Of a stretch of DNA of 64,000 nt, positions 15,591 to 31,534 are shown piece by piece. This stretch comes from Chelativorans multitrophicus (GTDB lineage Bacteria > Pseudomonadota > Alphaproteobacteria > Rhizobiales > Rhizobiaceae): the NCBI RefSeq assembly GCF_011317445.1, contig NZ_JAAAPL010000003.1, forward strand, positions 124,001 to 188,000. Direction: 5' to 3'. The translations under genes were made by a program, and so were the position numbers. Every line of letters begins with the position of its first letter. Positions within the stretch are counted from its first letter, which is position 1. The notes beneath the pieces were generated by a model that ran no database searches, was not told the DNA's origin, and worked only from the letters and a program-made list of their open reading frames with translations.

Positions 15591-15613
15591 ATTGATTGGA
15601 ATAGGCAATCAAT
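15591..15613. promoter_or_regulatory. LysR-type operator palindrome upstream of the aldolase operon
   Basis: Perfect inverted repeat ATTGATTG - 7 bases - CAATCAAT, followed by GAAG. The same arms, spacer length and trailing GAAG occur at 18146-18168, in front of the other leftward operon. It is probably the binding site of the LysR protein encoded at 18214-19137. Confidence 0.7.
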
Positions 15614-15755
15614 GAAGCGTGACGTGGCCAATCTGCGGCCACTCGCAAACCCTGCACCGACTGCACGCGCCCCAGAGCGCACACCGTCCAGCAATGGTAG
15701 CGTCGCAATTGAGGCAACCTGCCCAACGGCTTGTCCATGAGCAGACTGCCCCGCG

Positions 15756-16928: not shown

Positions 16929-16948
16929 GGCACGTCCCTTCGCTGTCG

Positions 16949-18067
16949 CTATGCTCTAAACTCGTAGACGGCGCTGTCCTGCCGAAACCGGATGCCGGCG
17001 GTCAGGCTATGCGCTACGACGAGGAAGGGCTGTCCGTCGCTTTCAAAGAATGCCGCATCTGTGGCGCCAAAGCTCGGAAAGCTATCCACCTGCCTCCACC
17101 CATCCGGGTGCCATTCATAAACGAACGATGTCAGGTCAGTTTTCGGAGATTGCGGCGTTCCCTCTATGAACCGCACCAGAACCAGCCAAGACCGTTCGCC
17201 ACGCTGATAAAGTGCGAATTCGCGGCCGCCATCGCGCCGCAAGATCTGCCGCATTTCGAATGCCTCTCCGGTCCATTCGAAAATACTGACGTCTCCCGAA
17301 ATCGTGGCGAAAGCCAGCTGGAAGCCATCACCCAGCCTGATGGGCTGAAACGCGCGCCCTCCATCTCCAGGCAGAAGTTGAAACTCCTCGTAGCGTCCGT
17401 CCCGCCACTCGTATATCCTGGAACCGGAGACGTGATCCGCATAGGCGAGGAATTCGCGTCCGCTGATCGAAAAGGCGGAGAAATTATACCCCCATTCTCC
17501 ATCCAGTGTCTGAAGGGGAACAAACTCGTGACCACGCCACTCGTAGATGAATGACCGGCTCGGGTGCCGCCGCTCGGGTCCATCCACGGTCACGCCCACC
17601 GCGTAAGCAAGGAAGTCTCGGCTACCGATGCGGAGGTGACGCACTTGTTTGGCGTAGAACGTTGGCACATCTTGAAAAACCTCGTAGCCGCGATCACCCA
17701 ACCGCCAGATGCGACTGGCCAAGTTAGGTTCATAAGGCCCCCGTCCTGACCGCGCGCTTGCCGTGGCTAAAAACCTCTGGCCGCCTATTTCGAAGAATTC
17801 GGCATCCTCTCCGCCGGGAACCCCCAGCGCTGCTATCTGCACAAAGGCTCCCGACATCCAGCGAAACAGGGGCATATCAACATCGCTCGTTCCGCCGTTC
17901 ATGTGCGCATCGCTGCCCTCGATATCCTTGGCGAGTTGGGGAACGGCAAGAAGCACATTGTCATCCTGCACGCAGACAGCGGCCGCCCGAGCACCAAATG
18001 TTTCAATGGCAGCTACCGGATGGATAACCCGACCTTCACCCTCGAAGGCGCGCAAATCGCCCGTCAT
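16949..18067 (-). CDS. EPTP/EAR-repeat beta-propeller protein
   Basis: A 372-residue protein made almost entirely of repeats of about 45 residues with the pattern hxxW..G.xFxxxQxL ... hxhxGxxFLAxA. These match the EPTP (epilepsy-associated, EAR) repeat best known from LGI1. Copies begin near residues 66, 118, 172, 217, 261 and 314; the last strand (SAVYEF, about 366) and the first segment (17-45) together make a seventh, which would close a seven-bladed propeller. No signal peptide is seen, so a cytosolic location is likely. ATG at 18067 follows AGAGGGG; a GTG one codon earlier is possible. EPTP repeats usually bind protein or sugar ligands; its partner here may be the co-transcribed 390-residue protein. 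Confidence 0.8.
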   Translation of the reverse strand: MTGDLRAFEGEGRVIHPVAAIETFGARAAAVCVQDDNVLLAVPQLAKDIEGSDAHMNGGTSDVDMPLFRWMSGAFVQIAALGVPGGEDAEFFEIGGQRFLATASARSGRGPYEPNLASRIWRLGDRGYEVFQDVPTFYAKQVRHLRIGSRDFLAYAVGVTVDGPERRHPSRSFIYEWRGHEFVPLQTLDGEWGYNFSAFSISGREFLAYADHVSGSRIYEWRDGRYEEFQLLPGDGGRAFQPIRLGDGFQLAFATISGDVSIFEWTGEAFEMRQILRRDGGREFALYQRGERSWLVLVRFIEGTPQSPKTDLTSFVYEWHPDGWRQVDSFPSFGATDAAFFESDGQPFLVVAHSLTAGIRFRQDSAVYEFRA

Positions 18068-18145
18068 CACGTTTCCCCTCTCAGCGGATATGAGAACGTG
18101 TCTAGTGGGAGGAGCATGACCGAAGCAATTTCAACTTCGGCCTCT

Positions 18146-18168
18146 ATTGATTGCGAATTCCAATCAAT
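18146..18168. promoter_or_regulatory. LysR-type operator palindrome upstream of the EPTP-repeat operon
   Basis: Perfect inverted repeat ATTGATTG - 7 bases - CAATCAAT followed by GAAG, 79 bp upstream of the EPTP-repeat gene start and just past the 3' end of lysR. It is identical in arms and spacing to the copy at 15591-15613. Confidence 0.7.
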
Positions 18169-18213
18169 GAAGGGAGCATCGACGGCACAGCAGATCGTTT
18201 CCCGGATCTCTAA

Positions 18214-19137
18214 TCAGATTTCAGCACCGATACCCTCACCAGCCTCCGTCGAGAACGCCTGCTGGGCAAGGTGAACCAATTGCTGGACTTTCAGATTGGC
18301 CTCACCGGTTCGGAACGCGAGTAGAAGCTCTGTAATGGCATCTTCGTCGGCAATATGCCGAAACTCAAGGTTTGGTATCTGGATATATCTCAATCCTCCA
18401 GGAACCACCGCCACCCCCAATCCGGCGGCAACCAATCCCACGATTGTGGTGGCCTCCTCGGCTTCCTGAACGATGTCCGGCGCGAAGCCCCACTTGCCGC
18501 AGAGCTTAATGAACTGGTCGTAGATCCCGATACCCATCTTACGTGGAAAAAAGATGAACTTCTCCTTGGCAAGCTCTGGAATAGCGACGACCGACTTGGA
18601 CGTCAGAGGGTGTCCCGAAGGCAAGGCCACCACGAGCCGGTCGGTGGCCAGTCGTCGGGTCGAAATCTCGGCGGGTATACTCTGGCGGGGTCGGCGCAGC
18701 AGCCCGATATCGATCGTTCCCTCACTCAGGGCAGAAATTTGCTGCACAGTGGTCATCGACTGCAACTGCACGTCGATTTCCGGGAATTTCTTCTGAAATG
18801 CACTGATCAGCTTTGGGAACGGGGACAGCAACGACGAAGCGGCCGTGAAAGCAATGCGCAACTGTCCTGCCTTGCCGTTCACGATCGCGCGGATGTCCTG
18901 TTCGCAATGTTCCAGTCGGCTAATCAACCCCTGCGCATGATCGTAGAGCCGTCTGCCGACCTCGGTAAGCTGGACGCTTCGCTGATTCCGATGAAAAAGC
19001 TTTGCGCCTAATTCCTGCTCAAGATTTTGAATTGCGATGGAAAGGGGGCTTTGTGTGATGTTCAACTTTTCGGCAGCACGCCTGAAATGAAGCTCCTCGG
19101 CCAGAACGCTAAAATATTGAAGCTGCTTCAGATTCAC
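18214..19137 (-). CDS. LysR-family transcriptional regulator
   Basis: A 307-residue LysR-type regulator. The N-terminal winged helix-turn-helix covers about residues 1-60 (MNLKQLQYFSVLAEELHFRR, ITQSPLSIAIQNLEQELGAKLF), and a periplasmic-binding-like effector domain follows. Its N-terminus resembles the BenM/CatM branch that senses aromatic catabolites, but this is only a family-level impression. It precedes the EPTP operon on the same strand. Two perfect palindromes stand before the two leftward operons and a rearranged one stands 29 bases before its own start, suggesting it controls both operons and itself. Confidence 0.93.
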   Translation of the reverse strand: MNLKQLQYFSVLAEELHFRRAAEKLNITQSPLSIAIQNLEQELGAKLFHRNQRSVQLTEVGRRLYDHAQGLISRLEHCEQDIRAIVNGKAGQLRIAFTAASSLLSPFPKLISAFQKKFPEIDVQLQSMTTVQQISALSEGTIDIGLLRRPRQSIPAEISTRRLATDRLVVALPSGHPLTSKSVVAIPELAKEKFIFFPRKMGIGIYDQFIKLCGKWGFAPDIVQEAEEATTIVGLVAAGLGVAVVPGGLRYIQIPNLEFRHIADEDAITELLLAFRTGEANLKVQQLVHLAQQAFSTEAGEGIGAEI

Positions 19138-19165: not shown

Positions 19166-19187
19166 AATCAATGCCAGGGGATTGATT
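19166..19187. promoter_or_regulatory. Candidate autoregulatory LysR site
   Basis: AATCAAT - 8 bases - ATTGATT, the same half-sites as at 15591 and 18146 but in the opposite order, 29 bases upstream of the lysR start. This fits the usual binding of LysR proteins at their own promoter. Confidence 0.5.
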
Positions 19188-19476
19188 GGTATACAACAAG
19201 AAAAACTGGCGTGATTTTGATCCGCATAGGGCTAACGACTCTGGGCGTTGTGCAGCGGAAAAAGCTGAAGGCCTCCGGGCGCCGCTGCCGACTGTCTGTC
19301 CGTCCGCGGCATCCAACTAGAACGCGCTATTGAACCTGCGTCACCCTGCGCTCACCTCCGGTCCGCAGTTCGGCGCCCGGAAACCGGCAGCTGACTGCGT
19401 AGCTGCTCCAATCCGTGGCACCAATCTAGATCAAGTAAGGTTTCGCGCCGCTAGAGAGATTACGCCTATCGGTACA

Positions 19477-19523: not shown

Positions 19524-20693
19524 CTAGTTTGCAACCGCTTGGCTTGCTTTCTGTTTCCGCTCGGACTCGAACTGGTCAAAAGCCAGTTTCGTGGCACGTG
19601 ATTTGCTGTCCTGAAGGTCCGATTTGTGCGCGGAGTTCCATTCGTAGGAAGCTATGCGGTTGGCGTTTGCGCCCGAAAAATGCGGCATCACATAGCGCGC
19701 ATAAAGTTCATGCGAACGCTTTGTCTCCTCCCAGTCAGCCCAGTCATGAATGAGCTGCGTGAAATAGCCGAACCCGCCTTGCTGGTCGAGGAGCCGCTGG
19801 ATCAGCTCTATGGCGTCATCTGGCGTCCCGACGACGCCATAGCCATTGGCGCAGAACCACTCGACGGGATCCTCTCCCGCAGGAATGGTATAGCGCTGAT
19901 CGTGATTGTTGTAGTAGTTGATGTACCGCATGAAGCCCCATTCGCAGTTGGCACGGGCTTTTTCCCGCGTCTCGGCGATGTGAATCGGCGCAACGACACG
20001 CAACCGCTGGCGGTCCATCGTCGTGCCGCGTTCGGCCGCGATTTCGCAGGCGATCTGCCAATTGGTCGACAATGCATTGAATCCCGTGGGCGAGGCGGCG
20101 GCCACGCACAGCATGCTCAGGCCGTAGGTTGCAGCGATCTTCCCGCCTGACGGCGTCGCTGAGCTTGCCACTGCGATCTCGGGCCGCGGCAGCGTATAGG
20201 GAAGCAGGTGGGCGCGGGCCTCGACAAGATTGTACCAGGACGTTTTCTCGGTCACCGTCTCCCCATCCAGCAGGCGCAGGATAACGTCCAGCGCCTCCGT
20301 CATCATCTCGCGCTGCTTGTTCGTGTCGATTCCCAACTGGAACGCATCCGATGCCAACAGACCGGGTCCAAATCCGAAGCTGACGCGACCGCGCGTCATG
20401 TGATCAAGCTGAATTATACGGTTCGCCACCATCAGAGGGTTGTGATAGGGCAACGAGATGACGCCGGTTCCAAAGCGCAGACGACGTGTGCGCTCGGCTG
20501 CCGCCGCGATGAAAAGCTCCGGCGAGCAAATGGTCTCAAAGCCGGCTGAGTGATGTTCGCCGATCCATGCTTCGTCAAAGCCGAGTTTATCAAGCCATTC
20601 CATGAGCTCGAAATCGCGATGGATGCACATCGTCGGGTTCTCGTCGAGCGGATGATAGGGTGCCACGAAGACACCATGTCCGAGATTCGGCAT
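19524..20693 (-). CDS. Luciferase-like (LLM class) flavin-dependent monooxygenase
   Basis: A 389-residue TIM-barrel protein of the bacterial luciferase superfamily. These enzymes use reduced FMN from a partner reductase to insert oxygen into an organic substrate. Visible motifs are GFDEAWIGEHHSAGFE, RLRFGTGVISLPYHNPLMVANR, QLDHMTRGRVSFGFGPG and VASSATPSGGKIAA. It is closest in look to the limonene-monooxygenase-like subgroup. The start at 20693 has AAGGAGGAG upstream; the longer reading would include the operator. A full GntR-type site lies 48 bp upstream, and a likely FMN reductase is encoded at 29249-29857 in another unit of the same regulon. Confidence 0.9.
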   Translation of the reverse strand: MPNLGHGVFVAPYHPLDENPTMCIHRDFELMEWLDKLGFDEAWIGEHHSAGFETICSPELFIAAAAERTRRLRFGTGVISLPYHNPLMVANRIIQLDHMTRGRVSFGFGPGLLASDAFQLGIDTNKQREMMTEALDVILRLLDGETVTEKTSWYNLVEARAHLLPYTLPRPEIAVASSATPSGGKIAATYGLSMLCVAAASPTGFNALSTNWQIACEIAAERGTTMDRQRLRVVAPIHIAETREKARANCEWGFMRYINYYNNHDQRYTIPAGEDPVEWFCANGYGVVGTPDDAIELIQRLLDQQGGFGYFTQLIHDWADWEETKRSHELYARYVMPHFSGANANRIASYEWNSAHKSDLQDSKSRATKLAFDQFESERKQKASQAVAN

Positions 20694-20740
20694 CAGTAAG
20701 CTCCTCCTTGTGGATGCGGCGTCTCCCAGCAGAGACAGAA

Positions 20741-20763
20741 TTTGGTATACCAAATACCAAATT
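20741..20763 (-). promoter_or_regulatory. GntR-type operator (site 1), monooxygenase promoter
   Basis: On the minus strand this reads AATTTGGTATTTGG then TATACCAAA, containing the 14-bp perfect palindrome TTTGGTATACCAAA (20741-20754). It is 48 bp upstream of the monooxygenase start. The same element recurs at 21656-21678, 25242-25264 and 28334-28356. Confidence 0.75.
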
Positions 20764-20863
20764 GCTGTCAACGGCCAGATCGGCACGGCATGGCGTCGGA
20801 ACCTCCGGAACGTGGAGCGTCCGCCTTCACTCCGCGAACGCTACCGTAGACCTGCCGGAAATC

Positions 20864-21532
20864 TCATTTTCCAACGGCGCGAGACTGCAGTTGTGAGAGA
20901 ACTGCGTCCCTGGATCCATCGATGTGCTTGCGCATGAATTTCGCCGCCATGGCCGCGTCCTTGGCGAAGAAGGCTTCAACGATAGCGTTTCGCTCGCCAA
21001 TGGTGCGCACCTGGAGTTCGAGGCTTTCATTGGCTGAGTGCCGCGCGAGCTGAACTTGCAGCCGCAGATTGCTCAGGCAACTGATCAATGTGTCATTGCC
21101 CGACAGCGTCGCGATCATGGCATGGAACTGGCCGTCCGCCTTCTCGAATTCAGACCGGTCTCCCGAGTCGAATGCCGCATGGCAACGCTCGACCAGCGAC
21201 TTGAGCGCAGCACGATCATCATCGCTGGCATTGCGGACTGCCAGGCTGACAGCAAGGGTCTCGAGATTCTTTCGGACATCAAAAAGGTCGCGAATCTGCT
21301 TGCTGGAGAAGGTTCGCACATAATTCCCCTGATAGGGGCGCCGCTCGATGATGCCTTCGGCGGAAAGCCGGCCGATGGCCTCACGCACAGGCGTGCGGCT
21401 GATGTTCATCTTCTCGGCCAAGTCGCGTTCATCGAGCCGCTCGCCGATTTGCAGGTGGCCTGCGGCTATTAGCTCGCACAGAAGGTCATATGCGCGTTGA
21501 TTGACCGTGCTGATCCCAATTGCATAGTCCAT
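20864..21532 (-). CDS. GntR-family (FadR/FCD-type) transcriptional regulator
   Basis: A 222-residue regulator with an N-terminal winged helix (AYDLLCELIAAGHLQIGERLDE, NISRTPVREAIGRLSAEGIIERR) and an all-helical FCD effector domain (VRKNLETLAVSLAVRNA, FHAMIATLSGN). FCD proteins generally act as repressors released by an organic acid. The ATG at 21532 is taken as the start; the GAGGAG upstream is about 15 bases away, which is long, but no better codon is present and the domain begins there. It lies between the monooxygenase gene and the divergent Tm-1-like operon. Five related sites before its own gene and four other units mark it as the likely controller of the region. Confidence 0.9.
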   Translation of the reverse strand: MDYAIGISTVNQRAYDLLCELIAAGHLQIGERLDERDLAEKMNISRTPVREAIGRLSAEGIIERRPYQGNYVRTFSSKQIRDLFDVRKNLETLAVSLAVRNASDDDRAALKSLVERCHAAFDSGDRSEFEKADGQFHAMIATLSGNDTLISCLSNLRLQVQLARHSANESLELQVRTIGERNAIVEAFFAKDAAMAAKFMRKHIDGSRDAVLSQLQSRAVGK

Positions 21533-21578
21533 GGTCTGAACCGAAAGCTCCTCATTTCTGTTCAGCCCAGATATAGGA

Positions 21579-21609
21579 AAGTGCACAAAATACCAAGTAC
21601 AATGCACTT
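21579..21609 (-). promoter_or_regulatory. Diverged GntR-type site within an inverted repeat, gntR promoter
   Basis: A 7-bp inverted repeat (AAGTGCA / TGCACTT) encloses, on the minus strand, ACTTGGTATTTTGT, a diverged copy of the TTTGGTATTTGGT element. It is about 50 bp upstream of the GntR start, a probable autoregulatory site. Confidence 0.5.
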
Positions 21610-21640
21610 CCTCCCAGTCGGCTAACGCGATCGCCCACCT

Positions 21641-21678
21641 CCCCGGTCTTGACCGGGGATGGTATTTGGTATACCAAA
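21641..21678 (+). promoter_or_regulatory. GntR-type operator (site 2) with adjacent palindrome, Tm-1-like operon promoter
   Basis: GGTATTTGGTATACCAAA (21661-21678) repeats the regulon element. Two bases before it is a further perfect inverted repeat CCCCGGTC / GACCGGGG (21641-21658, 2-base centre). Both lie in the divergent region between gntR and the Tm-1-like gene, 75 bp before the latter's start. Confidence 0.7.
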
Positions 21679-21753
21679 CGCCAAGTGCTGACGGCTCGGG
21701 AGATTCCTGCACGTTGAGGCTGGTGGACCGTTGGTGAGCGAGGGAGGAGCCGC

Positions 21754-22986
21754 ATGTCTACTGTTGTGCTCATGGGCACGCTCGATACGAAAGGCGCGGA
21801 ATATGCCTTTTTGCGTGACGAGATCGAAAAGCAGGGGATTGAAACCCTTCTTGTGGATACAGGGATCCTCGGGGATCCATCGACCCGGCCCGACATATCC
21901 AGAAGCGTGGTGGCAGAGGCGGCCGACGCCGACCTTGCGGCCCTTATAGAGGCTCACGATCGCGGTGCCGCCGTTTCGGCGATGGCCAAGGGCGCCGCAG
22001 CTCTTGCGCTGCGCCTCTATGAGGAAGGCAAGCTGGACGCGATCGCCGGGCTGGGCGGCACCGGTGGAACCGCCTTGGTGACCGCTGCCATGAGAGCACT
22101 GCCGATTGGCGTGCCGAAGCTGATGGTTTCGACGGTGGCTTCCGGCGACACGCGTGCCTATGTCGGCTCAACGGACATTACGATGATGCACTCGGTGGTC
22201 GACATCGCGGGCATCAACAAAATTTCCCGCAAAATACTCGGAAACGCCGCAGGCGCTGTTGCAGGCATGGCGGGACAGCCCGTGACCGACGCGCCATCGC
22301 GTGAGGCACCGCTGATCGCCGCCACAATGTTTGGCGTGACGACGCCGTGTGTCCAGAAGGCCCGTGAATTGCTCGAGCGGAGCGGCTTCGAAGTTCTCAC
22401 CTTTCATGCGACCGGAACCGGCGGGCGCTCGATGGAGGAACTCACGAAAGCAGGAATGTTCTCAGCCGTGCTCGACGTGACGACGACCGAACTCGCAGAT
22501 GAACTCGTCGGAGGCGTTTTCTCAGCAGGGCCGGACCGGCTGACGGCCGCCGGCGCGGCTGGCATTCCGCAGATCGTCAGCCTCGGCGCGCTGGATATGG
22601 TCAATTTCGGCGCATGGGAGACGGTTCCGGAAAAATTCCGGGAGCGGAATCTGTATCGCCACAACGCTTCGATTACCCTGATGCGGACTACGCCACAGGA
22701 GTGCCTGGAAATCGGAAGGCGGCTCGGTTCGCGTCTTAGCCAGTCAAAAGGGCCCACCGTGGTTTTCGTGCCGCTCAAGGGCATTTCGCTCATCGCGCGT
22801 GCGGGCCAGCCCTTCCACGATCCCGAAGCCGATAATGCGCTGCTGCGTGGGCTGCGTGAGTCGTTGCGTGCCGACATCGAGATCCGCGAGTTCAATACCG
22901 ACATCAATGATCCCTCCTTCGCGGAAGCAATGGTGGAGGCGCTTATCGAGATAATGGCCGAAAAGAAGGTCAATGCTCATGCATGA
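21754..22986 (+). CDS. Tm-1-like ATP-binding domain protein (UPF0261)
   Basis: A 410-residue UPF0261 family protein, the stand-alone equivalent of the N-terminal half of the plant Tm-1 resistance protein. Seen: [18 protein letters not shown] at the N-terminus, [30 protein letters not shown], and the later [18 protein letters not shown]. The family binds ATP in Tm-1; the bacterial reaction is not established. GGGAGGAG lies just before the ATG. Its 3' end overlaps the TIM-barrel gene that corresponds to the second half of Tm-1. It is the first gene of an operon continuing to a TIM-barrel isomerase and a cupin. Confidence 0.92.
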
Positions 22987-23842
22987 TCGCAAAACCATTC
23001 TGAAACGCCTTCGTTCAACAATTGCCGATGGCAAGGCCATCGTGGGCGCAGGCGCGGGAACCGGGCTTTCAGGGAAATGCGCGGAAGCGGGCGGCGTCGA
23101 TCTGATCATCATTTATAATTCGGGCAGATACCGGATGGCCGGCCGCGGCTCGCTTGCCGGATTGATGCCTTATGGCGACGCCAATGCAATCGTCATGGAC
23201 ATGGCGCGCGAGGTGCTGACTATCGTGAAGGACACTCCGGTTCTGGCAGGTGTGTGCGGGACCGATCCTTTCCGCCTCATGCCGATCTTTCTTCGCCAGG
23301 TTGCCGATGCCGGCTTTGCCGGTGTTCAGAACTTTCCGACCGTGGGACTGATCGACGGTACATTCCGCGAGAATCTCGAGGGCACCGGCATGGGGTTCGG
23401 CCTTGAGGTGGAAATGATCGCCCGGGCGCACGAGCTTGACTTGCTTACCTGCCCATACGTGTTCGATCCAGAGCAGGCGCGTCAGATGGCGGCGGTTGGC
23501 GCCGACATTATCGTCGCCCACATGGGTCTGACCACCTCGGGGACGATCGGCGCTTCCGTAGCGATGTCACTCGAAGACGCTGTTGCCCGCGTGCAGGAGA
23601 TTCGTGATGCCGCGGCAGAGGTGCGCAACGATATCATAGTGCTGTGCCACGGCGGCCCGATCGCGATGCCCGCGGACGCGGAATTCGTGCTTTCGCGAAC
23701 CAAAGGCGTCGCGGGCTTTTTTGGCGCATCAAGCCTCGAGCGGCTGCCTACCGAGACAGCGATGACGGAGACCGCGCGCGCGTTCAAGGCTGTGGGGCAT
23801 GCTGCCCGTCAGCCCGCTTCCGAAGACGGAAATCTCAAATGA
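22979..23842 (+). CDS. Phosphoenolpyruvate-hydrolase-family TIM-barrel protein
   Basis: A 287-residue protein matching the TIM-barrel C-terminal half of plant Tm-1 (PEP mutase/IGPS-like superfamily). Visible segments are [59 protein letters not shown] and [15 protein letters not shown]. The actual reaction in bacteria is unknown. The start at 22979 is favoured by AAGAAGG nine bases upstream; ATG at 22973 is also in frame. The 8-base overlap with the UPF0261 gene implies translational coupling and a complex in which the two Tm-1 halves act together. Confidence 0.9.
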
Positions 23843-24705
23843 CACGACTGACCGTGTTGAACTCGATGGCTTCCGCGGACTTCTCAGAGTCAATCGAGAT
23901 ACAGAAAAGCTGGGGCATTCGCGACCTTGATCTTCGGGATTCGATCCTTGGCGAAAGCATCAATGATCTTAGCCAGCCCACCGCCGAACGGGTTCGCAAG
24001 GCGATCGACGGGAGCGGGCTGGAAGTGACCTGCCTTTCCAGCACCTTCTTCAAGGAGGACTTGTCCAAGGGCCAGGATCATTTCGTTGAACAACACTTGC
24101 GCAAGCTCGAGAGCGTCCTTGCCGCCGCCCAGATCCTCAGGCCGCGCTTTTTCAGGCTGATCGCGGCAAGCCTTCCCGTCGACGGCAATGGGCGCCGTCT
24201 GGCGCTGCTTGAGCATGAACTCGCCTGGGTTGTCGACCTCTATCGCGAGGCGGTGGACCGGATTGCCGAGGCCGGCCTGAGGACGACCATCGAGAACGAG
24301 GCCCCAAATTCAATCTTCACCCACGACGACGACATTATCGGTTTTTTTGAACTTCTCGGCCGGCCCGAAACCGCAAGCTTCACATGGGACATCCAGAACC
24401 AGTGGGCCTGCGGGGTATTTCCTTCGATCGAGGGGTTCGAACGGCTCAAGAACTTGATCGGCTATGTCCACGTCAAAGGCGGGCAAGCGGAGCCGTCAGG
24501 CCGCGATCTGGTCTGGGCGGCTTCCCTTGAGGATTCAGACTGGCCGGTCAGGACCATCGTTCAGGCTGTGGTGGACTCGGGTATCTCGCCAGTTATCTGC
24601 CTCAACCGGCCGAGCCACGGCAGGCCCAAGCCGGGGTACGACTACGAAGCGCTGACCAAGCGAGACATCGACTTTTTGCGTAGTGAAATAATAGGGATCG
24701 AATGA
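23839..24705 (+). CDS. Xylose-isomerase-like TIM-barrel protein (sugar phosphate isomerase/epimerase family)
   Basis: A 288-residue AP_endonuc_2/xylose-isomerase-like barrel. Metal-site strands are recognisable: [16 protein letters not shown] (Glu), [12 protein letters not shown] (Asp), [10 protein letters not shown] (His) and a closing acidic region. Members isomerise or epimerise keto sugars or act as hydroxyacid-handling enzymes. The start codon ATGA overlaps the previous stop, so it belongs to the Tm-1-like operon; the longer frame from 23644 is an overlap artefact. Its substrate is unknown but presumably a product of the neighbouring enzymes. Confidence 0.85.
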
Positions 24706-25091
24706 TGAGCGAAGATGCAATGGCAGACGAGGTTATCGTGAGCCGCAACGACCGACACCTCGTCGTACCGACCTCTTGGGGACGTCTGGTCTGGCAGGTC
24801 GGAGCCTCGCAGAACAACTCGCGGAACCTCACGGTTGGCATGTGCTACATCGAGCCCGGACAGGCAAACGGGCGTCATTATCATCCCAATTGCGAGGAAG
24901 TCCTAACCGTCGTCAGCGGCCGTATCGTGCACACTTGGGATGATCAGGAAGTTGAAATGAGCGAGGGTGACGCCATTACCATACCTGCGAACATCGTCCA
25001 CAACGCACGCAACATCGGCGAACATACGGCGGCGATGTTCATCGTCTTTTCCAGTGCCTACCGCGCAGCGATTGCGGAGGAGAAACAGTGA
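24702..25091 (+). CDS. Single-domain cupin
   Basis: A 129-residue cupin with a good metal-binding motif 1 (PGQANGRHYHPNCEEVLTVVSG, giving HxH and Glu) and motif 2 (GDAITIPANIVHNARN, giving His). It probably binds a divalent metal and acts as a small isomerase, lyase or sensor. It starts by overlapping the stop of the TIM-barrel gene (ATGATGA) and is the last gene of the unit; a strong hairpin and the next operator follow. Two adjacent ATGs (24702 and 24705) are equally plausible starts. Confidence 0.85.
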   Translation: MMSEDAMADEVIVSRNDRHLVVPTSWGRLVWQVGASQNNSRNLTVGMCYIEPGQANGRHYHPNCEEVLTVVSGRIVHTWDDQEVEMSEGDAITIPANIVHNARNIGEHTAAMFIVFSSAYRAAIAEEKQ

Positions 25092-25151
25092 ACGGCCGTG
25101 AGCACGGCCCATCCTCCTCTGCTGACGACCATGACCAGAGGCGCTGCTTCG

Positions 25152-25189
25152 TGGCGCCTGTCTAGCGGCACTTCGCTAGACCAGCGCCA
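25152..25189 (+). terminator. Long interrupted hairpin after the cupin gene
   Basis: Inner perfect stem GTCTAGCG / CGCTAGAC (6-base loop) extended by an outer stem TGGCGC / GCGCCA, 38 bases in all. A T-run (ATATTTTT) appears about 15 bases later, too far for a classical terminator. A smaller hairpin GGCCGT / ACGGCC (25094-25109) lies right after the cupin stop. It probably ends or attenuates the upstream unit before the TRAP promoter. Confidence 0.45.
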
Positions 25190-25241
25190 ACCAACGGAGA
25201 GACATATTTTTCAAAACGTTGGATGGCGCGTTCCATTGACG

Positions 25242-25264
25242 AATTTGGTATTTCGTATACCATA
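25242..25264 (+). promoter_or_regulatory. GntR-type operator (site 3), TRAP transporter promoter
   Basis: AATTTGGTATTTCG then TATACCATA, differing from the consensus by few bases, 60 bp upstream of the TRAP binding-protein start. It shows that transport genes belong to the same regulon. Confidence 0.7.
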
Positions 25265-25324
25265 CACCGTCAACGACGTCGCTGATGAACGTCGTCCAAG
25301 CAATAGTGGAGGAGGAGAAATTCA

Positions 25325-26338
25325 ATGTTCAAGATGAGCCGACGCCTGTTACTGGCCGCAGCCGCCACAGGCTGTATATCGCTTGCCGCGCCTGCGGTGG
25401 CCCAGGAAGTCAGACTGGACATGCAGGAATATTTCGGTCCGACCAATCTCTCGGGAACCGCCAGTTCCGATTTCGCGAAGCTGGTTTCAGAAAAGACGAA
25501 CGGCCAGGTCCAGATCAATGTTCACTTCAACGGCTCGTTGGGCCTGGGGGAAGCAGACATCCTGAAGACAGTCGAGCAGGGCGTTGTGCCGCTCTCAACA
25601 TCCATGCTCGATAAGATGCTCGGCACGATCCCGGTCGCCGCTATTCAGTCGGTGCCGTTCATGGCGACGTCGCTAGACGAGTCACGTGCGCTCTTCGAGT
25701 CTTTCGAGCCCTATGTCCGCGAGCAGCTCGAAAGCCAAAATCAGATGCTTCTGTTCGAGGTGATCTCGCTGCCGGATGGACTCTGGTCGAAGAAGCCCGT
25801 TCCCGACGTCGATGCATTGAAAACGCTGAAGACCCGCACCAACAGCCCGATTGCGACAAGAACCCTGAGTAATGTCGGCGCCTCTCCGGTTCCCATGGCC
25901 TGGGGTGATGTTGCGCCGGCGCTGGTAACGGGCGTTATCGACTCCGTCATCACGACGGACGATAACGGGCTCCAGTCGCATCTTTACGAGCAGATGTCAG
26001 ACTTCACACGGCTCAACATGTCGACGGCATTCTGGATCGTTCACATGAATAAGGATGCCTACAATTCCCTTTCTCCCGACGAGCAGAAGGCTGTGCTGGA
26101 GGCCGCCGAGCAGGCGCGTTCCGACGCATATGACAGGGCGAAGGTGCGCCTCAAGGAAAACAGCGCTGAAATGATTTCGAAAGGCATTGCAGTGGCTGAA
26201 GAAATATCCATGCCGTTCCGGCAGGCGCTCATTGAAGCTGCGGCGCCTTTGCGCGATGAGTGGTCCCAGAAGGTCGGCGCGGATGTCAGCTCTGCGGTGC
26301 TGTCTTCCTATGAAGAAGCCAAAAAAGGGTCAAACTGA
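25325..26338 (+). CDS. TRAP transporter substrate-binding protein (DctP type)
   Basis: A 337-residue periplasmic binding protein with a signal peptide (MSRRLLLAAAATGC..., cleavage near AVAQE). It is of the DctP family: GSLGLGEADILKTVEQGVV, KTLKTRTNSPIATRTLSNVGASPVPMAWGDVAPAL and TTDDNGLQSHLYEQ, the Arg in the RT(N/S) region being the usual carboxylate contact. A GGAGGAGG-type site precedes the ATG. TRAP systems use ion gradients to take up organic acids. The gene is followed by a 10-bp hairpin and then the two membrane components. Confidence 0.93.
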   Translation: MFKMSRRLLLAAAATGCISLAAPAVAQEVRLDMQEYFGPTNLSGTASSDFAKLVSEKTNGQVQINVHFNGSLGLGEADILKTVEQGVVPLSTSMLDKMLGTIPVAAIQSVPFMATSLDESRALFESFEPYVREQLESQNQMLLFEVISLPDGLWSKKPVPDVDALKTLKTRTNSPIATRTLSNVGASPVPMAWGDVAPALVTGVIDSVITTDDNGLQSHLYEQMSDFTRLNMSTAFWIVHMNKDAYNSLSPDEQKAVLEAAEQARSDAYDRAKVRLKENSAEMISKGIAVAEEISMPFRQALIEAAAPLRDEWSQKVGADVSSAVLSSYEEAKKGSN

Positions 26339-26357
26339 TTTAGCCGACGCATACCCT

Positions 26358-26381
26358 CCCGGCTCGCGCAGGCGGGCCGGG
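26358..26381 (+). other. Intercistronic hairpin after the TRAP binding-protein gene
   Basis: Ten-base-pair stem CCCGGCTCGC / GCGGGCCGGG (one G-U pair) with a GCAG loop, between the binding-protein stop and the small permease gene. Such structures commonly stabilise the 5' segment of the transcript so that the binding protein is made in excess. Confidence 0.6.
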
Positions 26382-26407
26382 GCTGATTCACACGGGAGGA
26401 GGTTTGC

Positions 26408-26917
26408 ATGCTGGCGAGGATTCTTGCTGCCACGGCGCGGTTTGGCGAAATTGCGGCCGGCGCCGTTCTGGTGGCTATGACTGCGTATATGCTTGTGGAA
26501 ATCGTCCTGCGCTGGACACTTGGCGTCTCGTCCAACCAAGTGGTGGAGTTCGTCGGATATGGGCTGGCGACGATGACCTTCCTTGGCGCGGCCCAGACCG
26601 TCCGCGACGGCGGAATGCTGCGGATAAACCTTCTCCTCTATTTCCTGCCCGAGGGTGTGCGAAAAGCATTTGATCTGCTCTGCATTGCCATCGGCATTTT
26701 TGCCATATCCTTTGTCGGGTACTACTACTGCGTGGACATGTATAGCAGCTATGTGCGCGGCTATGAAACGGAAGGCGTCATTGCGCTGCCTCTCTGGGTG
26801 CCGCCTCTGGGCCTCGTACTTGGATCGGTCCTTTTCCTGGTCGAGATGGTTCGCCAGTTCATCATGATTATGATCGGCGGTGAACGCTTCGCGGAATCGA
26901 TGGCAGAAGCCACCTAG
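26408..26917 (+). CDS. TRAP transporter small membrane subunit (DctQ type)
   Basis: A 169-residue membrane protein with four hydrophobic segments: FGEIAAGAVLVAMTAYMLVEI, the FVGYGLATMTFLGAA region, FDLLCIAIGIFAISFVGYYY and PLGLVLGSVLFLVEM. This is the pattern of DctQ subunits, which join the large permease and the binding protein. GGGAGGAGG lies upstream of the ATG. It is separated from the DctM gene by 12 bases. Confidence 0.92.
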   Translation: MLARILAATARFGEIAAGAVLVAMTAYMLVEIVLRWTLGVSSNQVVEFVGYGLATMTFLGAAQTVRDGGMLRINLLLYFLPEGVRKAFDLLCIAIGIFAISFVGYYYCVDMYSSYVRGYETEGVIALPLWVPPLGLVLGSVLFLVEMVRQFIMIMIGGERFAESMAEAT

Positions 26918-26929
26918 GGGATTTTTGCC

Positions 26930-28240
26930 ATGGAACCGGAATTCGCAAGAGGTCTCATCATAGTGGCCGTGCTGCTGGTGCTCCTCGGGTCGGGCATCTG
27001 GATCTTCGGGGCAATCTTCCTGATCAGTCTCGGCGGGTTGTTCTTTCTGCAGGATTTCTCGTTCGTTCGTATAGGCACGCTAATGAAAACCGTGTCGTGG
27101 CGCGCCCTCACCAGCTATGAACTGGCCTCGCTCCCGCTGTTCGTCTGGATGGCCGAGATTCTGTTCCGAACGCGACTGTCGGAGCAGATTTTCAGAGGCG
27201 TATCGCCCTGGGTGGACTGGGTACCGGGAAGGCTTCTCCACGTGGTTATCGTAGCCTGTGGATTGTTCGGAGCCGTTTCCGGTTCATCCACGGCCACGTG
27301 CGCGACCGGGTCCAAGATTGCCCTGCCGGAACTGCGCAAGCGTGGCTACGACGACGGTGTTATCATCGGCGCTCTCTCCGCGGGCGGCACGTTGGGGATT
27401 ATGATCCCACCCTCGATCGCCATGGTGATCTATGCGGTCGTCGCCGAGGTTTCACTTGTCAAGCTGATGCTCGCCGGCTTCCTGCCCGGATTGCTGATGA
27501 TGGGGCTCTTCTCCGGCTACATCTGTGGTTGGTCCGTCCTCAATCCACATCGCACACCAGACGATCCCGAACCGATGCGACTCATCGAGCGGTTTGCCAG
27601 ATTATTCGAACTCGCACCAGTTGCCGTGCTGTTCATCTTCATCTTCGGCGCGTTGTTTGCCGGCTACATCACCGCCACCGAATGCGCGGCGTGGGGAGTG
27701 GCGGGCGCCCTCCTGATTGCTGCGCAGCAGCGCTTGCTGACGTGGGAGACATTCAAGCTCAGCATACGAGGGACGGTTCGTACCACCAGCATGCTTGTCA
27801 TGCTTATCGGCATGGCCGCCATCATGTCGTCGTTTGTCGCCCTTGCCGGGATACCCAACGCAATGTCGCGCGCGGTGGACAGTCTGGGCGTCGGCCCCTT
27901 CGGACTGGTGGCGATCCTGATGCTGGTCTTTATCGTGCTGGGCATGTTCCTCGACGGCATGTCCATGATTCTTCTGACCTTGCCGGTAACCCTGCCGATG
28001 GTCGTCGCCGCTGGCTTCGACCCAATCTGGTACGGGATTTTCCTTATTCTGATGATTGAGATTGGTGCGCTGACCCCACCCGTGGGCTTCAACCTCTTCG
28101 TCCTTCAGAACATTACCGGCAAGAACATATTCTCGATCGGCCGGATGTCATTTCCGTTCTTCCTGATGATGGTCATCTGCATCTTCGTTCTGGTGGCGTC
28201 CCCGCAAATCGTAATGGTTCTGCCCAATCTCTATCACTGA
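26930..28240 (+). CDS. TRAP transporter large permease (DctM type)
   Basis: A 436-residue polytopic inner-membrane protein, the translocation channel of the TRAP system. It has about twelve hydrophobic segments and the family motifs SGSSTATCATGSKIALPELRKRGYD and GTLGIMIPPSIAMVIYAVVAEVS, then GALTPPVGFNLFVLQNI near the C-terminus. The length is typical. It is the final gene of the three-gene transporter unit governed by site 3; the next operator follows within 100 bases. Confidence 0.94.
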   Translation: MEPEFARGLIIVAVLLVLLGSGIWIFGAIFLISLGGLFFLQDFSFVRIGTLMKTVSWRALTSYELASLPLFVWMAEILFRTRLSEQIFRGVSPWVDWVPGRLLHVVIVACGLFGAVSGSSTATCATGSKIALPELRKRGYDDGVIIGALSAGGTLGIMIPPSIAMVIYAVVAEVSLVKLMLAGFLPGLLMMGLFSGYICGWSVLNPHRTPDDPEPMRLIERFARLFELAPVAVLFIFIFGALFAGYITATECAAWGVAGALLIAAQQRLLTWETFKLSIRGTVRTTSMLVMLIGMAAIMSSFVALAGIPNAMSRAVDSLGVGPFGLVAILMLVFIVLGMFLDGMSMILLTLPVTLPMVVAAGFDPIWYGIFLILMIEIGALTPPVGFNLFVLQNITGKNIFSIGRMSFPFFLMMVICIFVLVASPQIVMVLPNLYH

Positions 28241-28333
28241 GACCGGAGCAGGACCCAGATCACCAGTGCTGGGCTGACCGCAGCAATTCGAGTGCCGCTG
28301 TTTCGGACGGTGAGAATTGCGTTGCGTTGACGT

Positions 28334-28356
28334 GATTTGGTATTTGGTATACTGTA
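28334..28356 (+). promoter_or_regulatory. GntR-type operator (site 4), SDR-FMN reductase operon promoter
   Basis: GATTTGGTATTTGGTATAC with a weaker right arm (TGTA), 27 bases before the SDR start codon, so it overlaps the probable promoter. The left two-thirds match sites 1-3 exactly. Confidence 0.65.
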
Positions 28357-28382
28357 CACAGAAACTAGGGAGCGAAACGATC

Positions 28383-29147
28383 TTGGAAAAGGCAGTCGTA
28401 TTGATTACCGGGGCGGCCAGCGGAATCGGCGCCGCCGTAGCGCGCAAGCTCGCCGCAGACGGATTTCGCGTTGCGGCGTGCGACCTGAATTTGCCTGGCG
28501 CGGAGGCAACCGCGTCAGCGCTGGGGGATGGCCACAAAGCGTGGCTGATGAATGTGACGGATGAGTCGAGCGTGGCCGCCAGCTTCGCCGGTGCCGTCGA
28601 GAGTATGGGGCCAATCTACGGCGTCGTTTGTTGCGCGGGGGGCGTGAAGTCGTCCTATGACAAGATGCCCGCAACCGCAGATGTTTCGCTCGACGACTGG
28701 ATTTGGACGGAGGCGTTAAACGCGCGCGGCGCGTTCTTGTGTATTCGCGAATTCCTGCGTCAGCATCGTGCAAACCGGTTGCAGGGCGGCAGGATCGTGA
28801 CCTTCGCGTCGCTGGCTGGCCAAACCGGCCGAAAGGCCGGGGTTTCCTACGGTGCGGCCAAGGCAGCGGTGCTGGGCCTGACGCGCACTGTGGCGCTCGA
28901 GGTCGCGCCCCAGGGGATTACCTGCAACGCCGTGGCGCCGGGAGTCATCGACACGCCCGCCTTCCGCGGCATCGTGGAGGCAGGTCCCCAAGACGAATTG
29001 CGGGGCCCCTACATCCAGGAGGTTCCGCTGAAGCGCGTCGGCAAAGCCGAGGAAGTCGCCGCCGCGGTCTCCTATCTGATGTCACCGGGTGCCGGGTTCG
29101 TCACCGGCTCGACCCTCGACGTCAATGGCGGGCTCAGGATGGGCTGA
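28383..29147 (+). CDS. Short-chain dehydrogenase/reductase
   Basis: A 254-residue NAD(P)-dependent SDR with cofactor motif TGAASGIG, the NNAG-equivalent CCAGG, the catalytic Ser (FASLAGQ), YGAAK with Tyr and Lys, and the C-terminal TGSTLDVNGGLRMG. The start is a TTG at 28383 with AGGGAG ten bases upstream. The only in-frame ATG, at 28317, lies upstream of the operator and would place it inside the gene. It probably oxidises or reduces an intermediate of the regulon's pathway. Confidence 0.88.
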   Translation: MEKAVVLITGAASGIGAAVARKLAADGFRVAACDLNLPGAEATASALGDGHKAWLMNVTDESSVAASFAGAVESMGPIYGVVCCAGGVKSSYDKMPATADVSLDDWIWTEALNARGAFLCIREFLRQHRANRLQGGRIVTFASLAGQTGRKAGVSYGAAKAAVLGLTRTVALEVAPQGITCNAVAPGVIDTPAFRGIVEAGPQDELRGPYIQEVPLKRVGKAEEVAAAVSYLMSPGAGFVTGSTLDVNGGLRMG

Positions 29148-29248
29148 CTGCGGCCGCTCGCATGCGACCGATGACGGCTCCATCAGTCGCCAGAATCGCG
29201 GTCGCGACGAGCGACCGCCAGCGGCAACACAACGGGAGGAGAACCGAA

Positions 29249-29857
29249 TTGAGTAGCAGGCCTCTGATCGTCGGCATAGGCGGGTCGACCCGGCCGGGCT
29301 CGTCTTCAGAAATGGCATTGCGGTATGCGATGACCATGGCGAGCAATCTAGGGGCGGATATCGAGATCTTCGACGGAGCAGCATTGTCAATTCCCATGTA
29401 CGCGCCAGAAATCCCCTTCAGGACTGCGGAAGCGCAAAAGCTGATTGCCGCGCTTCAGCGTGCAGATGGCGTGATCCTGAGTTCTCCCGGCTACCATGGC
29501 TCGGTCTCCGGCATGCTTAAGAATGCCCTGGACTATGTGGAGGATTTGCGCAGCGACGTACGGCCCTATTTCGAGGGGCGGCCTGTCGGCTGCATTGTCT
29601 GCGCTTCCGGCTGGCAGGCGGTCGGTACTACTTTGACCGGTCTGCGGTCTGTGATTCACGCGCTAAGGGGCTGGCCCACGCCGCTGGGCGTTGGGATCAA
29701 CACAGCGGTAGGAAAGGCATTCAGCGCGAATGGCGATTGTCTGGATGAGGCCGTACGTGGGCAGCTGACCCTGCTTTCGCAGCAGGTTCTGGACTTTCTC
29801 AATGGCGAGCATGCGAAATGGCCGGCCCGGATGCGCGCTACGGCTAGAAAGGAATGA
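29249..29857 (+). CDS. NAD(P)H-dependent FMN reductase
   Basis: A 202-residue flavodoxin-like FMN reductase with VGIGGSTRPGSSSEMAL (phosphate-binding loop), SSPGYHGSVSGMLKNALDYVEDL (FMN site) and ASGWQAVGTTLTGLR. It probably supplies reduced FMN to the luciferase-like monooxygenase encoded in the same regulon at 19524-20693. The start is TTG at 29249 with GGGAGGAG seven bases before it; no ATG fits the domain. It lies about 100 bases after the SDR gene and overlaps the next gene by four bases. Confidence 0.88.
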   Translation: MSSRPLIVGIGGSTRPGSSSEMALRYAMTMASNLGADIEIFDGAALSIPMYAPEIPFRTAEAQKLIAALQRADGVILSSPGYHGSVSGMLKNALDYVEDLRSDVRPYFEGRPVGCIVCASGWQAVGTTLTGLRSVIHALRGWPTPLGVGINTAVGKAFSANGDCLDEAVRGQLTLLSQQVLDFLNGEHAKWPARMRATARKE

Positions 29858-30159
29858 CTATGCTTCTCAAGATTGGATGGGGCCGTCTCCGGCCAGGAGG
29901 CTGGGAGGATTTTGAGCGAGATTACGTCACCTTGCACGACAGCAATTTGGTGGCCGGACGTCAATCCTATTATCTGGTTCAGGACATTACTCAACCAGAT
30001 GCCGGCTTTGCATTGACGGTGTGGTCGAACGAAGCCGAGTTGGCCGCGTATGATAATTCGGCTCTCAGGCAACAAACGGTTTCCCAACTTCAGAAACATT
30101 TTACGGATCGCAACAACAACCAGATTTGCCGGATCAGACATCACAAGACCTGGTCCTAG
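29854..30159 (+). CDS. Antibiotic-biosynthesis-monooxygenase-like dimeric alpha-beta barrel protein
   Basis: A 101-residue small ferredoxin-like fold protein (KIGWGRLRPGGWEDFERDY, AGFALTVWSNEAELAAYD) of the ABM/dimeric alpha-beta barrel superfamily. Members oxidise quinols or act as accessory proteins without cofactors. Its ATG overlaps the FMN-reductase stop. Co-regulation with an FMN reductase and an LLM monooxygenase suggests a part in the same oxygenation, perhaps handling an unstable product. Confidence 0.75.
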   Translation: MTMLLKIGWGRLRPGGWEDFERDYVTLHDSNLVAGRQSYYLVQDITQPDAGFALTVWSNEAELAAYDNSALRQQTVSQLQKHFTDRNNNQICRIRHHKTWS

Positions 30160-30394: not shown

Positions 30395-31534
30395 TCAGTC
30401 CGCAATCGCGCGAGCGGACCCGGAGCCAGCGCCCTGTTTCGCGGATTTTGCGAGAAAGTCGGCATCATAGGGCAGCATAAAGTTGTGACCGCCACGCATT
30501 GTCACCCGAAGCTGTCCATCCACAATGTCTATCCTTTCCGCTTCCGTTTCGTGCCCGAAGAGCGTTGTGGCTCCTATCACGCACCGGATTTCCGGGTCTC
30601 CCTCGAGGGATATCGCCGTTTTGATGCCATTGCGGCTAAGGTGATTGTCGGAAATCGACGAGCTGTGGCCGTAGGCAAAATAAGTGCATGCTTCTTCCAC
30701 GCCAAGAACGCCGCGATGGCGGCCGTTCCATGGGGCATAAAACCGCCCCCCGTTGGAGTACCAGAAAATCGTCGCCGGAAGAACGGCCGGTTGTTTCAAC
30801 GCAATGGCGATGTCCCGTTCGTTTGGGCGGACAACCGCAGTCCAACCCAGCGGATTCGCCGGGTTTTCGATAAGCATCACCAGGTCTTCATTAATATCGG
30901 CAATCGGGTATCGCAGGAGATCCACCTGCCCACCATCACTCGTCGGAAATGCGTGGAGATCCTCTGACGTTGAAGGATACGCAAGTGCGGATTTTCCCCT
31001 TTCCGGATCAGGCTCCAGCGAAATGGCCATCGTCTCCGCTCGCAGCTTGGGCGACACAGATACCACACCCCCGGACGGCAAGCTCACCATCGGATGATAG
31101 GCGACCGGTATTGACCCTTGGCTTCCCACAAAACGGTGCGACTGGTAGAGGAACGGATGCCGGTCACGTACCGTCAAAGTCTTGATGACCTGACCGCCCA
31201 TGACCGTTTTAGAAAGCAGGAAGCTGGCGCGTTTACTTCCTTCGAAATCCTCCTCCTCCAGCAAGGTCCATGGCGCATTCGCAGGCCAGCCGTGAAGGGG
31301 CGTATTCTCGATATCGGACTTGGCGAAGGGCGCACAGAAGAAGTCAACCGACATTCGTTCCAGGTGCGGGTCCGTTCCCTCCGGGAATTCCTGGTTTGGA
31401 TCGTCCCTCCACGGGACTGTGTGGAACGGCGACAGTTCGCGGCCGTCGCGGGTGACGACGAGTTTTGAGATCTGCCCGAGGCCGAGGTCGAAGATTACCT
31501 CGATTCCGATCGCCGAAAGATTGTAAGACTTCAT
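30395..31534 (-). CDS. Aldose-1-epimerase-like (galactose-mutarotase fold) protein
   Basis: A 379-residue protein of the galactose-mutarotase-like beta-sandwich superfamily, judged from the layout ISKLVVTRDGRELSPF at the start, PLHGWPANAPWTLL (conserved His-Gly region), SHRFVGSQGSIPVAYHPMVSLP and FWYSNGGRFYAPWNGRHRGVLGVEEACTYFA. These enzymes interconvert sugar anomers. Its start forms a TGATG junction with the GMC oxidoreductase stop, and it is the last gene of a long leftward sugar operon. The specific sugar is unknown. Confidence 0.75.
   Translation of the reverse strand: MKSYNLSAIGIEVIFDLGLGQISKLVVTRDGRELSPFHTVPWRDDPNQEFPEGTDPHLERMSVDFFCAPFAKSDIENTPLHGWPANAPWTLLEEEDFEGSKRASFLLSKTVMGGQVIKTLTVRDRHPFLYQSHRFVGSQGSIPVAYHPMVSLPSGGVVSVSPKLRAETMAISLEPDPERGKSALAYPSTSEDLHAFPTSDGGQVDLLRYPIADINEDLVMLIENPANPLGWTAVVRPNERDIAIALKQPAVLPATIFWYSNGGRFYAPWNGRHRGVLGVEEACTYFAYGHSSSISDNHLSRNGIKTAISLEGDPEIRCVIGATTLFGHETEAERIDIVDGQLRVTMRGGHNFMLPYDADFLAKSAKQGAGSGSARAIAD

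What the first reader, a model, noticed from the sequence alone, without database searches (positions are those of the whole stretch)
19524..30159. Self-contained catabolic regulon for an unidentified substrate
One GntR/FCD regulator is surrounded by an LLM monooxygenase, an FMN reductase, an ABM protein, an SDR, a split Tm-1 pair, a xylose-isomerase-like barrel, a cupin and a TRAP importer. All units carry the same operator. Family knowledge says TRAP imports an acid, and the LLM enzyme plus FMN reductase make a two-component oxygenase; the Tm-1 pair and the barrel have no assigned reaction. I know no described pathway with this gene set.
Basis: partly seen in the sequence, partly recalled or inferred. 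Interest (0 to 1): 0.78.

Follow-up and report, generated by a model that had tools for sequence, protein, structure and literature searches.

The report
One-repressor breakdown cluster, substrate unknown
Twelve neighbouring bacterial genes for importing and breaking down an unidentified compound share one DNA switch found nowhere else in the genome; an old cassette with a probable small-molecule kinase has here been joined by an oxygenase and a new importer.

Summary
All twelve genes are present. The same operator, TTTGGTATTTGGTATACCAAA within 3 mismatches, occurs at four places in the 4.82 Mb assembly, one before each transcription unit, none elsewhere. All four lie inside a TTGAC-N-TATAC promoter, as expected for repressor occlusion.

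The gene set is not conserved as a whole. A core (GntR regulator, UPF0261, PEP-hydrolase-like barrel, xylose-isomerase-like barrel, cupin) recurs in Mesorhizobium sp. Root554 and one unnamed relative, with the operator conserved, but with a sugar-type Gfo/Idh dehydrogenase and other importers. The LLM oxygenase, FMN reductase and TRAP importer look like additions: a search detected them in none of 34 long UPF0261 loci, and SDR kin in 5.

"No assigned reaction" is out of date for UPF0261: a solved member binds acetovanillone (PDB 9mpy), very probably the kinase MarK. I propose a phosphorylating route: TRAP import of an acid, oxidation by SDR and oxygenase, phosphorylation by UPF0261, cleavage by its partner barrel. 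Regulon and modular make-up are shown by sequence; reactions and substrate are inferred.

The parts
19524..20693 (-). LLM: luciferase-like FMN-dependent monooxygenase, own transcription unit
   Evidence: Pfam PF00296 142 bits; none of the 25 NCBIfam models shown (of 32) over its cut-off; PDB kin 7bip, 3,6-diketocamphane monooxygenase, luciferase
20864..21532 (-). GntR/FCD repressor
   Evidence: PF00392 + PF07729; HTH part 67% and 78% identical in the two loci that keep the operator, 45-48% in three loci without a 12-mer match at 2 mismatches
21754..22986 (+). UPF0261 (Tm-1 N-terminal type), proposed ATP-dependent small-molecule kinase
   Evidence: PF06792 + PF23189; kin Tm-1 3wry and Saro_1862 9mpy
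22973..23842 (+). PEP_hydrolase-like TIM barrel (Tm-1 C-terminal type), proposed to act on the phosphorylated product
   Evidence: PF09370 435 bits; 2p10 Mll9387; HGGP and GASS at least 95% conserved in 35 sequences
23839..24705 (+). Xylose-isomerase-like TIM barrel
   Evidence: PF01261; model pLDDT 88; high-ranking solved folds are sugar epimerases, hydratases and lyases; E152, D184, H211 invariant in 5 sequences, E231 in 3 of 5; metal-ligand role recalled from the fold family
24702..25091 (+). Cupin
   Evidence: PF07883
25325..26338 (+). TRAP receptor (DctP)
   Evidence: PF03480; best PDB kin 2pfz and 2pfy, pyroglutamate-bound receptors; Arg171
26408..26917 (+). TRAP small membrane subunit (DctQ)
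   Evidence: PF04290
26930..28240 (+). TRAP large membrane subunit (DctM)
   Evidence: PF06808
28383..29147 (+). SDR dehydrogenase (TTG start)
   Evidence: PF13561/PF00106
29249..29857 (+). FMN reductase (TTG start)
   Evidence: PF03358; LLM genes in loci of relatives
29854..30159 (+). ABM-domain protein
   Evidence: PF03992; an ABM gene also follows the LLM gene in Novosphingobium
20741..20761 (-). Operator of the LLM unit (0 mismatches), inside promoter 20744-20771
21658..21678 (+). Operator between GntR and UPF0261 (2 mismatches), inside promoter 21649-21675
25244..25264 (+). Operator of the TRAP unit (2 mismatches), inside promoter 25236-25261
28336..28356 (+). Operator of the SDR/FMN reductase/ABM unit (3 mismatches), inside promoter 28327-28353

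Best explanation
A four-unit catabolic regulon repressed by one GntR/FCD protein, put together from two sources. (1) An inherited core: repressor, operator, UPF0261, PF09370 barrel, xylose-isomerase-like barrel and cupin. (2) Local additions under copies of the same operator: a TRAP importer, an SDR and a two-component LLM oxygenase with its FMN reductase and an ABM protein, in the place of the Gfo/Idh dehydrogenase and the other importers of related loci. Proposed working: with no substrate the repressor covers the -35/-10 interval of four promoters. The substrate, or something made from it, releases it. TRAP brings in a small hydroxylated carboxylate; the SDR makes a ketone; the LLM enzyme, fed FMNH2 by the reductase, inserts oxygen; the isomerase-like metal barrel isomerises or eliminates; UPF0261 phosphorylates the product with ATP, and the PF09370 barrel cleaves or hydrolyses the phosphorylated compound into central metabolites. 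Shown by sequence: gene families, operators, promoter-like elements, modular conservation. Inferred: repression, order of steps, kinase and cleavage reactions, substrate class.
For: Operator unique to the cluster in the whole assembly and inside a promoter-like element of every unit. Core with conserved operator in Mesorhizobium sp. Root554 L103 (GntR 54, UPF0261 67, PF09370 75, barrel 43, cupin 62% identity; operator 2 mismatches) and in unnamed G677 L113 (61, 67, 76, 48, 65%; exact 12-mer between GntR and an importer gene). The three UPF0261 proteins form one supported clade (97/94). The Gfo/Idh gene between barrel and cupin in L103 and L113 is absent here, and the best match in the genome is 34% over part of the protein. 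Kinase: 9mpy is a UPF0261 protein with bound acetovanillone; MarK is described as the single-component kinase starting acetovanillone catabolism in the same species. UPF0261 and PF09370 as partners: PF09370 in the locus in 26 of 34 long UPF0261 loci; plant Tm-1 fuses both and they co-evolve (PMC5028733 passages). HGGP and GASS of PF09370 resemble the phosphate-binding loops of TIM barrels (resemblance recalled; conservation).
Against: That MarK is Saro_1862 is my inference; the MarK paper is not held. Window UPF0261 is only 34% identical to 9mpy, and the C-terminal motifs near-invariant in its own branch (FGVTTPCV, DMVNF, TLMRTT) are replaced in 9mpy, so the substrate must differ and kinase activity might too. 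Six canonical UPF0261 genes have no PF09370 gene within 1.5 kb. No hydrolase for a lactone or ester, the usual next step after a Baeyer-Villiger reaction, is in the cluster. SDR kin occur in 5 of 34 long UPF0261 loci, so the SDR is less clearly an addition. The TRAP ligand is unknown.
Confidence: 0.5

Rival explanations
1. A MarK-like route for a lignin-type hydroxyaryl ketone or acid: UPF0261 phosphorylates a phenol, and the LLM enzyme acts on the ketone.
For: 9mpy binds acetovanillone; MarK starts acetovanillone catabolism; the Thermomicrobium locus holds UPF0261 and PF09370 with a split PEP-synthase-like pair, an FAA hydrolase and an ABM-family protein.
Against: No three-component carboxylase or phosphatase family, part of the Hpe/Acv route, is among the cluster genes; the C-terminal motifs of 9mpy are not shared; the core of several relatives sits with Gfo/Idh and with sugar, peptide or Tct-type importers.
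Confidence: 0.15
2. An oxidation-elimination route for a glycoside, anhydrosugar or cyclitol acid: a dehydrogenase makes a 3-keto compound and the isomerase-like metal barrel eliminates or hydrates it, as in levoglucosan and O-glycoside deglycosylation; here the SDR replaces Gfo/Idh.
For: Barrel next to Gfo/Idh in L103, L113 and L010; high-ranking folds include 2-hydroxy-3-keto-glucal hydratase 8ro4 and 3-keto-glucoside lyase 8tcd; the chemistry is described in PMC7676230 and PMC10628242 (passages).
Against: The window lacks the Gfo/Idh gene; sequence identity to those enzymes is only about 15%, and epimerases score as well; it does not explain LLM plus FMN reductase.
Confidence: 0.2
3. The LLM/SDR/FMN reductase/ABM set handles a different compound, for instance detoxification of a plant product, and only shares the repressor with the core.
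For: LLM and FMN reductase were not found with the core in the other loci examined; LLM kin lie in unrelated catabolic and biosynthetic clusters.
Against: Same extended operator on every unit, and on the importer too.
Confidence: 0.15

Closest known systems
Core cassette of Mesorhizobium sp. Root554 (NZ_LMGA01000001, L103)
   Same: GntR, UPF0261, PF09370, isomerase-like barrel, cupin; same operator and promoter geometry
   Different: has Gfo/Idh and a TctC/TctA importer; no LLM, FMN reductase, SDR, ABM or TRAP detected in the 20.9 kb held. Not seen in the papers listed
MarK / Saro_1862 of Novosphingobium aromaticivorans (PDB 9mpy; identity of the two inferred)
   Same: UPF0261 family; ASG, GIN.ISR and PLKG stretches shared
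   Different: 34% identity; C-terminal motifs of the PF09370-linked branch replaced; long separate branch of unsure place
Plant Tm-1 (fusion of UPF0261 and PF09370)
   Same: same two domains; 36-38% identity in the first
   Different: fused, in a plant; known as an inhibitor of a plant virus's replication (PMC5028733 abstract and passages); no metabolic role found
Two-component LLM monooxygenases (luciferase, diketocamphane monooxygenases)
   Same: LLM oxygenase plus separate FMN reductase
   Different: no curated model shown reaches its cut-off; substrate unknown
Hpe/Acv pathway for hydroxyphenylethanones
   Same: ATP-dependent phosphorylation as an early step, if UPF0261 is a kinase
   Different: no carboxylase or phosphatase family in the cluster

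Membership tests
GntR/FCD transcription regulators | GntR winged helix plus FCD domain | tested here: met
   PF00392 66 bits, PF07729 98 bits
GntR/FCD transcription regulators | binds a palindromic operator in its regulon | not testable with these tools
   the palindrome is there, at four places and none elsewhere, and is kept with similar regulators; binding itself needs an experiment
TRAP importer | P, Q and M subunits | tested here: met
   DctP, DctQ and DctM
TRAP importer | carboxylate-binding Arg in the receptor | tested here: met
   Arg171 aligns with an Arg of 2pfz, 2pfy and 6wgm; that this is the ligand Arg is recalled, its role from PMC3454389 (passage)
Two-component FMN-dependent LLM monooxygenase | LLM domain with a separate FMN reductase gene in the regulon | tested here: met
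   PF00296, PF03358, shared operator
Type II Baeyer-Villiger monooxygenase | ketone to ester chemistry | not testable with these tools
   kinship to diketocamphane monooxygenase at 77 bits
UPF0261 (Tm-1 N-terminal) family | both UPF0261 domains | tested here: met
   PF06792 226 bits, PF23189 315 bits
UPF0261 (Tm-1 N-terminal) family | kinase activity | not testable with these tools
   precedent only
MarK-type aromatic kinase | the letters of 9mpy at the positions of FGVTTPCV, DMVNF, TLMRTT (feature chosen by me) | tested here: not met
   the window keeps the canonical letters, 9mpy does not
Hpe/Acv hydroxyphenylethanone pathway | three-component carboxylase and phosphatase in the cluster | tested here: not met
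   none among the Pfam families of the 12 cluster proteins; rest of the genome not searched
Oxidation-elimination glycoside pathway (Lgd/OGE type) | Gfo/Idh dehydrogenase with isomerase-like metal barrel | tested here: not met
   barrel present, Gfo/Idh absent from the cluster and no close homologue of the L103 one in the genome; the pair is present in L103, L113, L010

The most novel reading that the evidence does not exclude
UPF0261 and PF09370 form a widespread phosphorylate-then-cleave enzyme pair, shared by bacteria, haloarchaea and (fused) plants, which serves different upstream routes; this window is a case in which an LLM oxygenase route has been wired into it under the same operator.
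Probability: 0.35. Interest if true: 0.78.

Novelty: new variant of a known kind. Interest (0 to 1): 0.5.

Why it matters
The Tm-1 pair is widespread in bacteria and fused in land plants, yet no metabolic role of the pair turned up in the papers found. A compact regulon with a unique operator gives a direct handle: whatever lifts the repressor, or is bound by the TRAP receptor, names the class of substrate. The comparison also suggests how an existing repressor cassette can gain a new oxygenase front end by copying its operator.

Tried and rejected
Considered and rejected: one conserved pathway; operator widespread in the genome (one search shows four places only; the 12-mer with 2 mismatches is uninformative); LysR at 18214-19137 as a fifth unit (site at 19185 has 3 mismatches of 14). 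A genomic island was neither shown nor excluded: GC is 0.53-0.61 over 8-46 kb with dips near 18-20 and 42-45 kb, and both flanks have only short matches, up to 328 bases, in the other 15 genomes of the genus.

Led nowhere: genome-contig scan with the barrel alone (49 pattern matches, 0 confirmed); host name (no SSU rRNA found in the assembly; DNA search of the right flank); the MarK paper and citing papers for its gene number; a paper holding at least 5 of 6 terms for this gene set (0 papers); the SAR202 paper for UPF0261. The UPF0261 model is weak (pTM 0.57), so its fold matches beyond its own family (UDP-GlcNAc 2-epimerase-like N-domain) are not used.

Caveats: ORFs of unnamed loci come from my own simple caller. 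The ABM search by phmmer at 1e-5 is insensitive (the annotated ABM-family gene of L003 was missed). The Gfo/Idh profile was built from 7 of the loci it then scanned, so its count is not independent. The 7 FMN reductase loci were picked by me (6 of 25 listed hits, plus L014). In some searches at most 4 candidates per genome were scored. The PF09370 flag for L006 is an ORF-start artefact (annotated next to UPF0261). Several gene functions in unnamed loci are read from sequence by eye.
Full report
Observation. Pfam places a luciferase-like monooxygenase, a GntR/FCD regulator, both UPF0261 domains, PF09370, a xylose-isomerase-like barrel, a cupin, a TRAP receptor, an SDR, an FMN reductase and an ABM protein at the stated positions, with DctQ and DctM between. 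By gene order and operators there are four units: LLM (minus strand), UPF0261-PF09370-barrel-cupin, TRAP P-Q-M, and SDR-FMN reductase-ABM, with the repressor gene facing the second.

Operator. TTGGTATACCAA occurs exactly twice in the 4.82 Mb assembly, both times here. The four sites share a longer element with three half-sites, TTTGGTATTTGGTATACCAAA. At up to 3 mismatches it gives 4 places in the genome, one per unit, and the reversed control gives none. Each site lies in a TTGAC-N-TATAC promoter-like element; the window holds 4 such matches in all (shuffle mean 0.5 over 50 shuffles), each at one operator. This is the layout of a repressor that blocks RNA polymerase. The promoter pattern was picked after looking at the sites, so the count is descriptive.

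Conservation. The barrel is rare: 1 of 397 genomes of the order (the window's own) at 1e-20; one clear plasmid match of 2; and 4 loci confirmed of 47 pattern matches in the scan of the genome collection (84,980 species genomes by the tool's description): two Mesorhizobium, a Poribacteria MAG and a Phycisphaerae MAG. Mesorhizobium sp. Root554 (L103) has GntR facing UPF0261-PF09370-barrel-Gfo/Idh-cupin-TctC-TctA, with the operator at 2 mismatches. The repressor's helix-turn-helix part is 67% and 78% identical in these two, and 45-48% in three loci without a 12-mer match at 2 mismatches. UPF0261 of window, G677 and Root554 forms one supported clade. M. amorphae pM0123a has the same genes with a more distant UPF0261 and no such operator found.

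So the core moves as a unit with its switch. In 34 long UPF0261 loci (14 kb or more; 33 distinct records, L104 repeats L010) PF09370 is present in 26, the cupin in 16, Gfo/Idh in 10 (profile seeded from 7 of these loci), the barrel in 4 and SDR kin in 5; LLM, FMN reductase, ABM and TRAP were detected in none, though an annotated ABM-family gene in L003 was missed. In 14 LLM loci of 11.7-20 kb UPF0261, PF09370 and the barrel were detected in none. The Gfo/Idh gene that sits between barrel and cupin in L103 and L113 is missing here, and the genome has no close homologue (best 34% over part). The simplest reading is that the oxygenase half and the TRAP importer were added to the core under copies of the operator.

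The oxygenase half. Relatives of the FMN reductase have an LLM gene in the same locus in 5 of 7 cases that I picked, in one of these at only 23% identity. The closest LLM relative found in the order sample (57%, G004) has a Flavin_Reduct protein next to it, and SDR and TRAP genes nearby. An ABM gene follows the LLM gene in Novosphingobium. This supports a two-component oxygenase fed by an SDR. Which reaction it does is open; the kin include a diketocamphane monooxygenase, luciferase and polyketide-pathway enzymes (listing).

The UPF0261 half. [quoted passage not shown] 2025 (PMC13101465, passages). I infer that MarK is Saro_1862; the paper is not held. The window protein is nearer to plant Tm-1 than to 9mpy by phmmer score. 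Among 45 relatives, 39 are of the canonical type and broadly keep the C-terminal motifs; 32 of the 45 have PF09370 next to them by script (33 with L006), all of these canonical; six of another type (DEN in place of DRG) have none within 1.5 kb. I conclude, as inference, that UPF0261 proteins are small-molecule kinases whose acceptor pocket differs between branches, and that in the canonical branch PF09370 handles the phosphorylated product. The HGGP and GASS stretches of PF09370, at least 95% conserved in 35 sequences, look like the phosphate-binding loops of TIM barrels (recalled).

The barrel. Its model is good (pLDDT 88); the best solved matches are a mixed group of sugar epimerases, dehydratases, a 3-keto-glucal hydratase and a 3-keto-glucoside lyase, tied within about 3 Z units. 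Three candidate metal ligands (E152, D184, H211) are invariant in five sequences; the fourth, E231, is kept in three of five. The fold therefore points to a sugar-like or keto-acid substrate but not to one reaction.

The import step. The TRAP receptor is nearest in the PDB to 2pfz and 2pfy (122 and 102 bits, next 85), which were solved with pyroglutamate (PMC3454389 passage), and has an Arg (171) where the kin have one; that it is the carboxylate-binding Arg is recalled. A small, perhaps cyclic, carboxylate is the best guess; the identity is too low to name it.

Verdict. The regulon and its modular make-up are established at the level that sequence allows. The substrate is not identified. The most likely working is uptake of an acid, oxidation, phosphorylation and cleavage. 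None of the papers listed describes this gene set as far as their listings and the passages read show (open-access library only).

Noticed in passing
window 13789-19137 (-): A separate cluster beside the regulon: amidohydrolase, HpcH/HpaI aldolase, DUF5624 protein, EPTP-domain protein and LysR; a weak operator-like site at 19185-19198 precedes LysR.
   Followed up: partly
window 30395-33165 (-): A 379-aa protein without a Pfam match at 0.001 next to a GMC oxidoreductase, in front of genes that read by eye as a sugar ABC importer.
   Followed up: no
L040, L041, L043-L046: A UPF0261 subfamily with DEN in place of DRG and changed C-terminal motifs, with no PF09370 gene within 1.5 kb in 6 of 6; function unknown.
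   Followed up: partly
L018/L047, L108-L110: Canonical UPF0261 genes (54-60% identity) without PF09370 nearby; one (L047) sits among genes that look by eye like a tetronate kinase and an aldolase.
   Followed up: partly
L113:17131-17991: A second copy of the isomerase-like barrel (46%) with genes that read as another importer, and a weak operator-like site at L113:14394-14414.
   Followed up: partly
L003:8254-18167: Thermomicrobium locus with UPF0261 and PF09370 beside a split PEP-synthase-like pair, reminiscent of the two-component aromatic kinase HpeHI (PMC12167813 abstract and passages).
   Followed up: no
L053, L055: In two relatives UPF0261-PF09370-cupin lies with genes that read as a sugar ABC importer and an M24 creatinase/prolidase-type protein (Pfam for L053; L055 by eye).
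   Followed up: no
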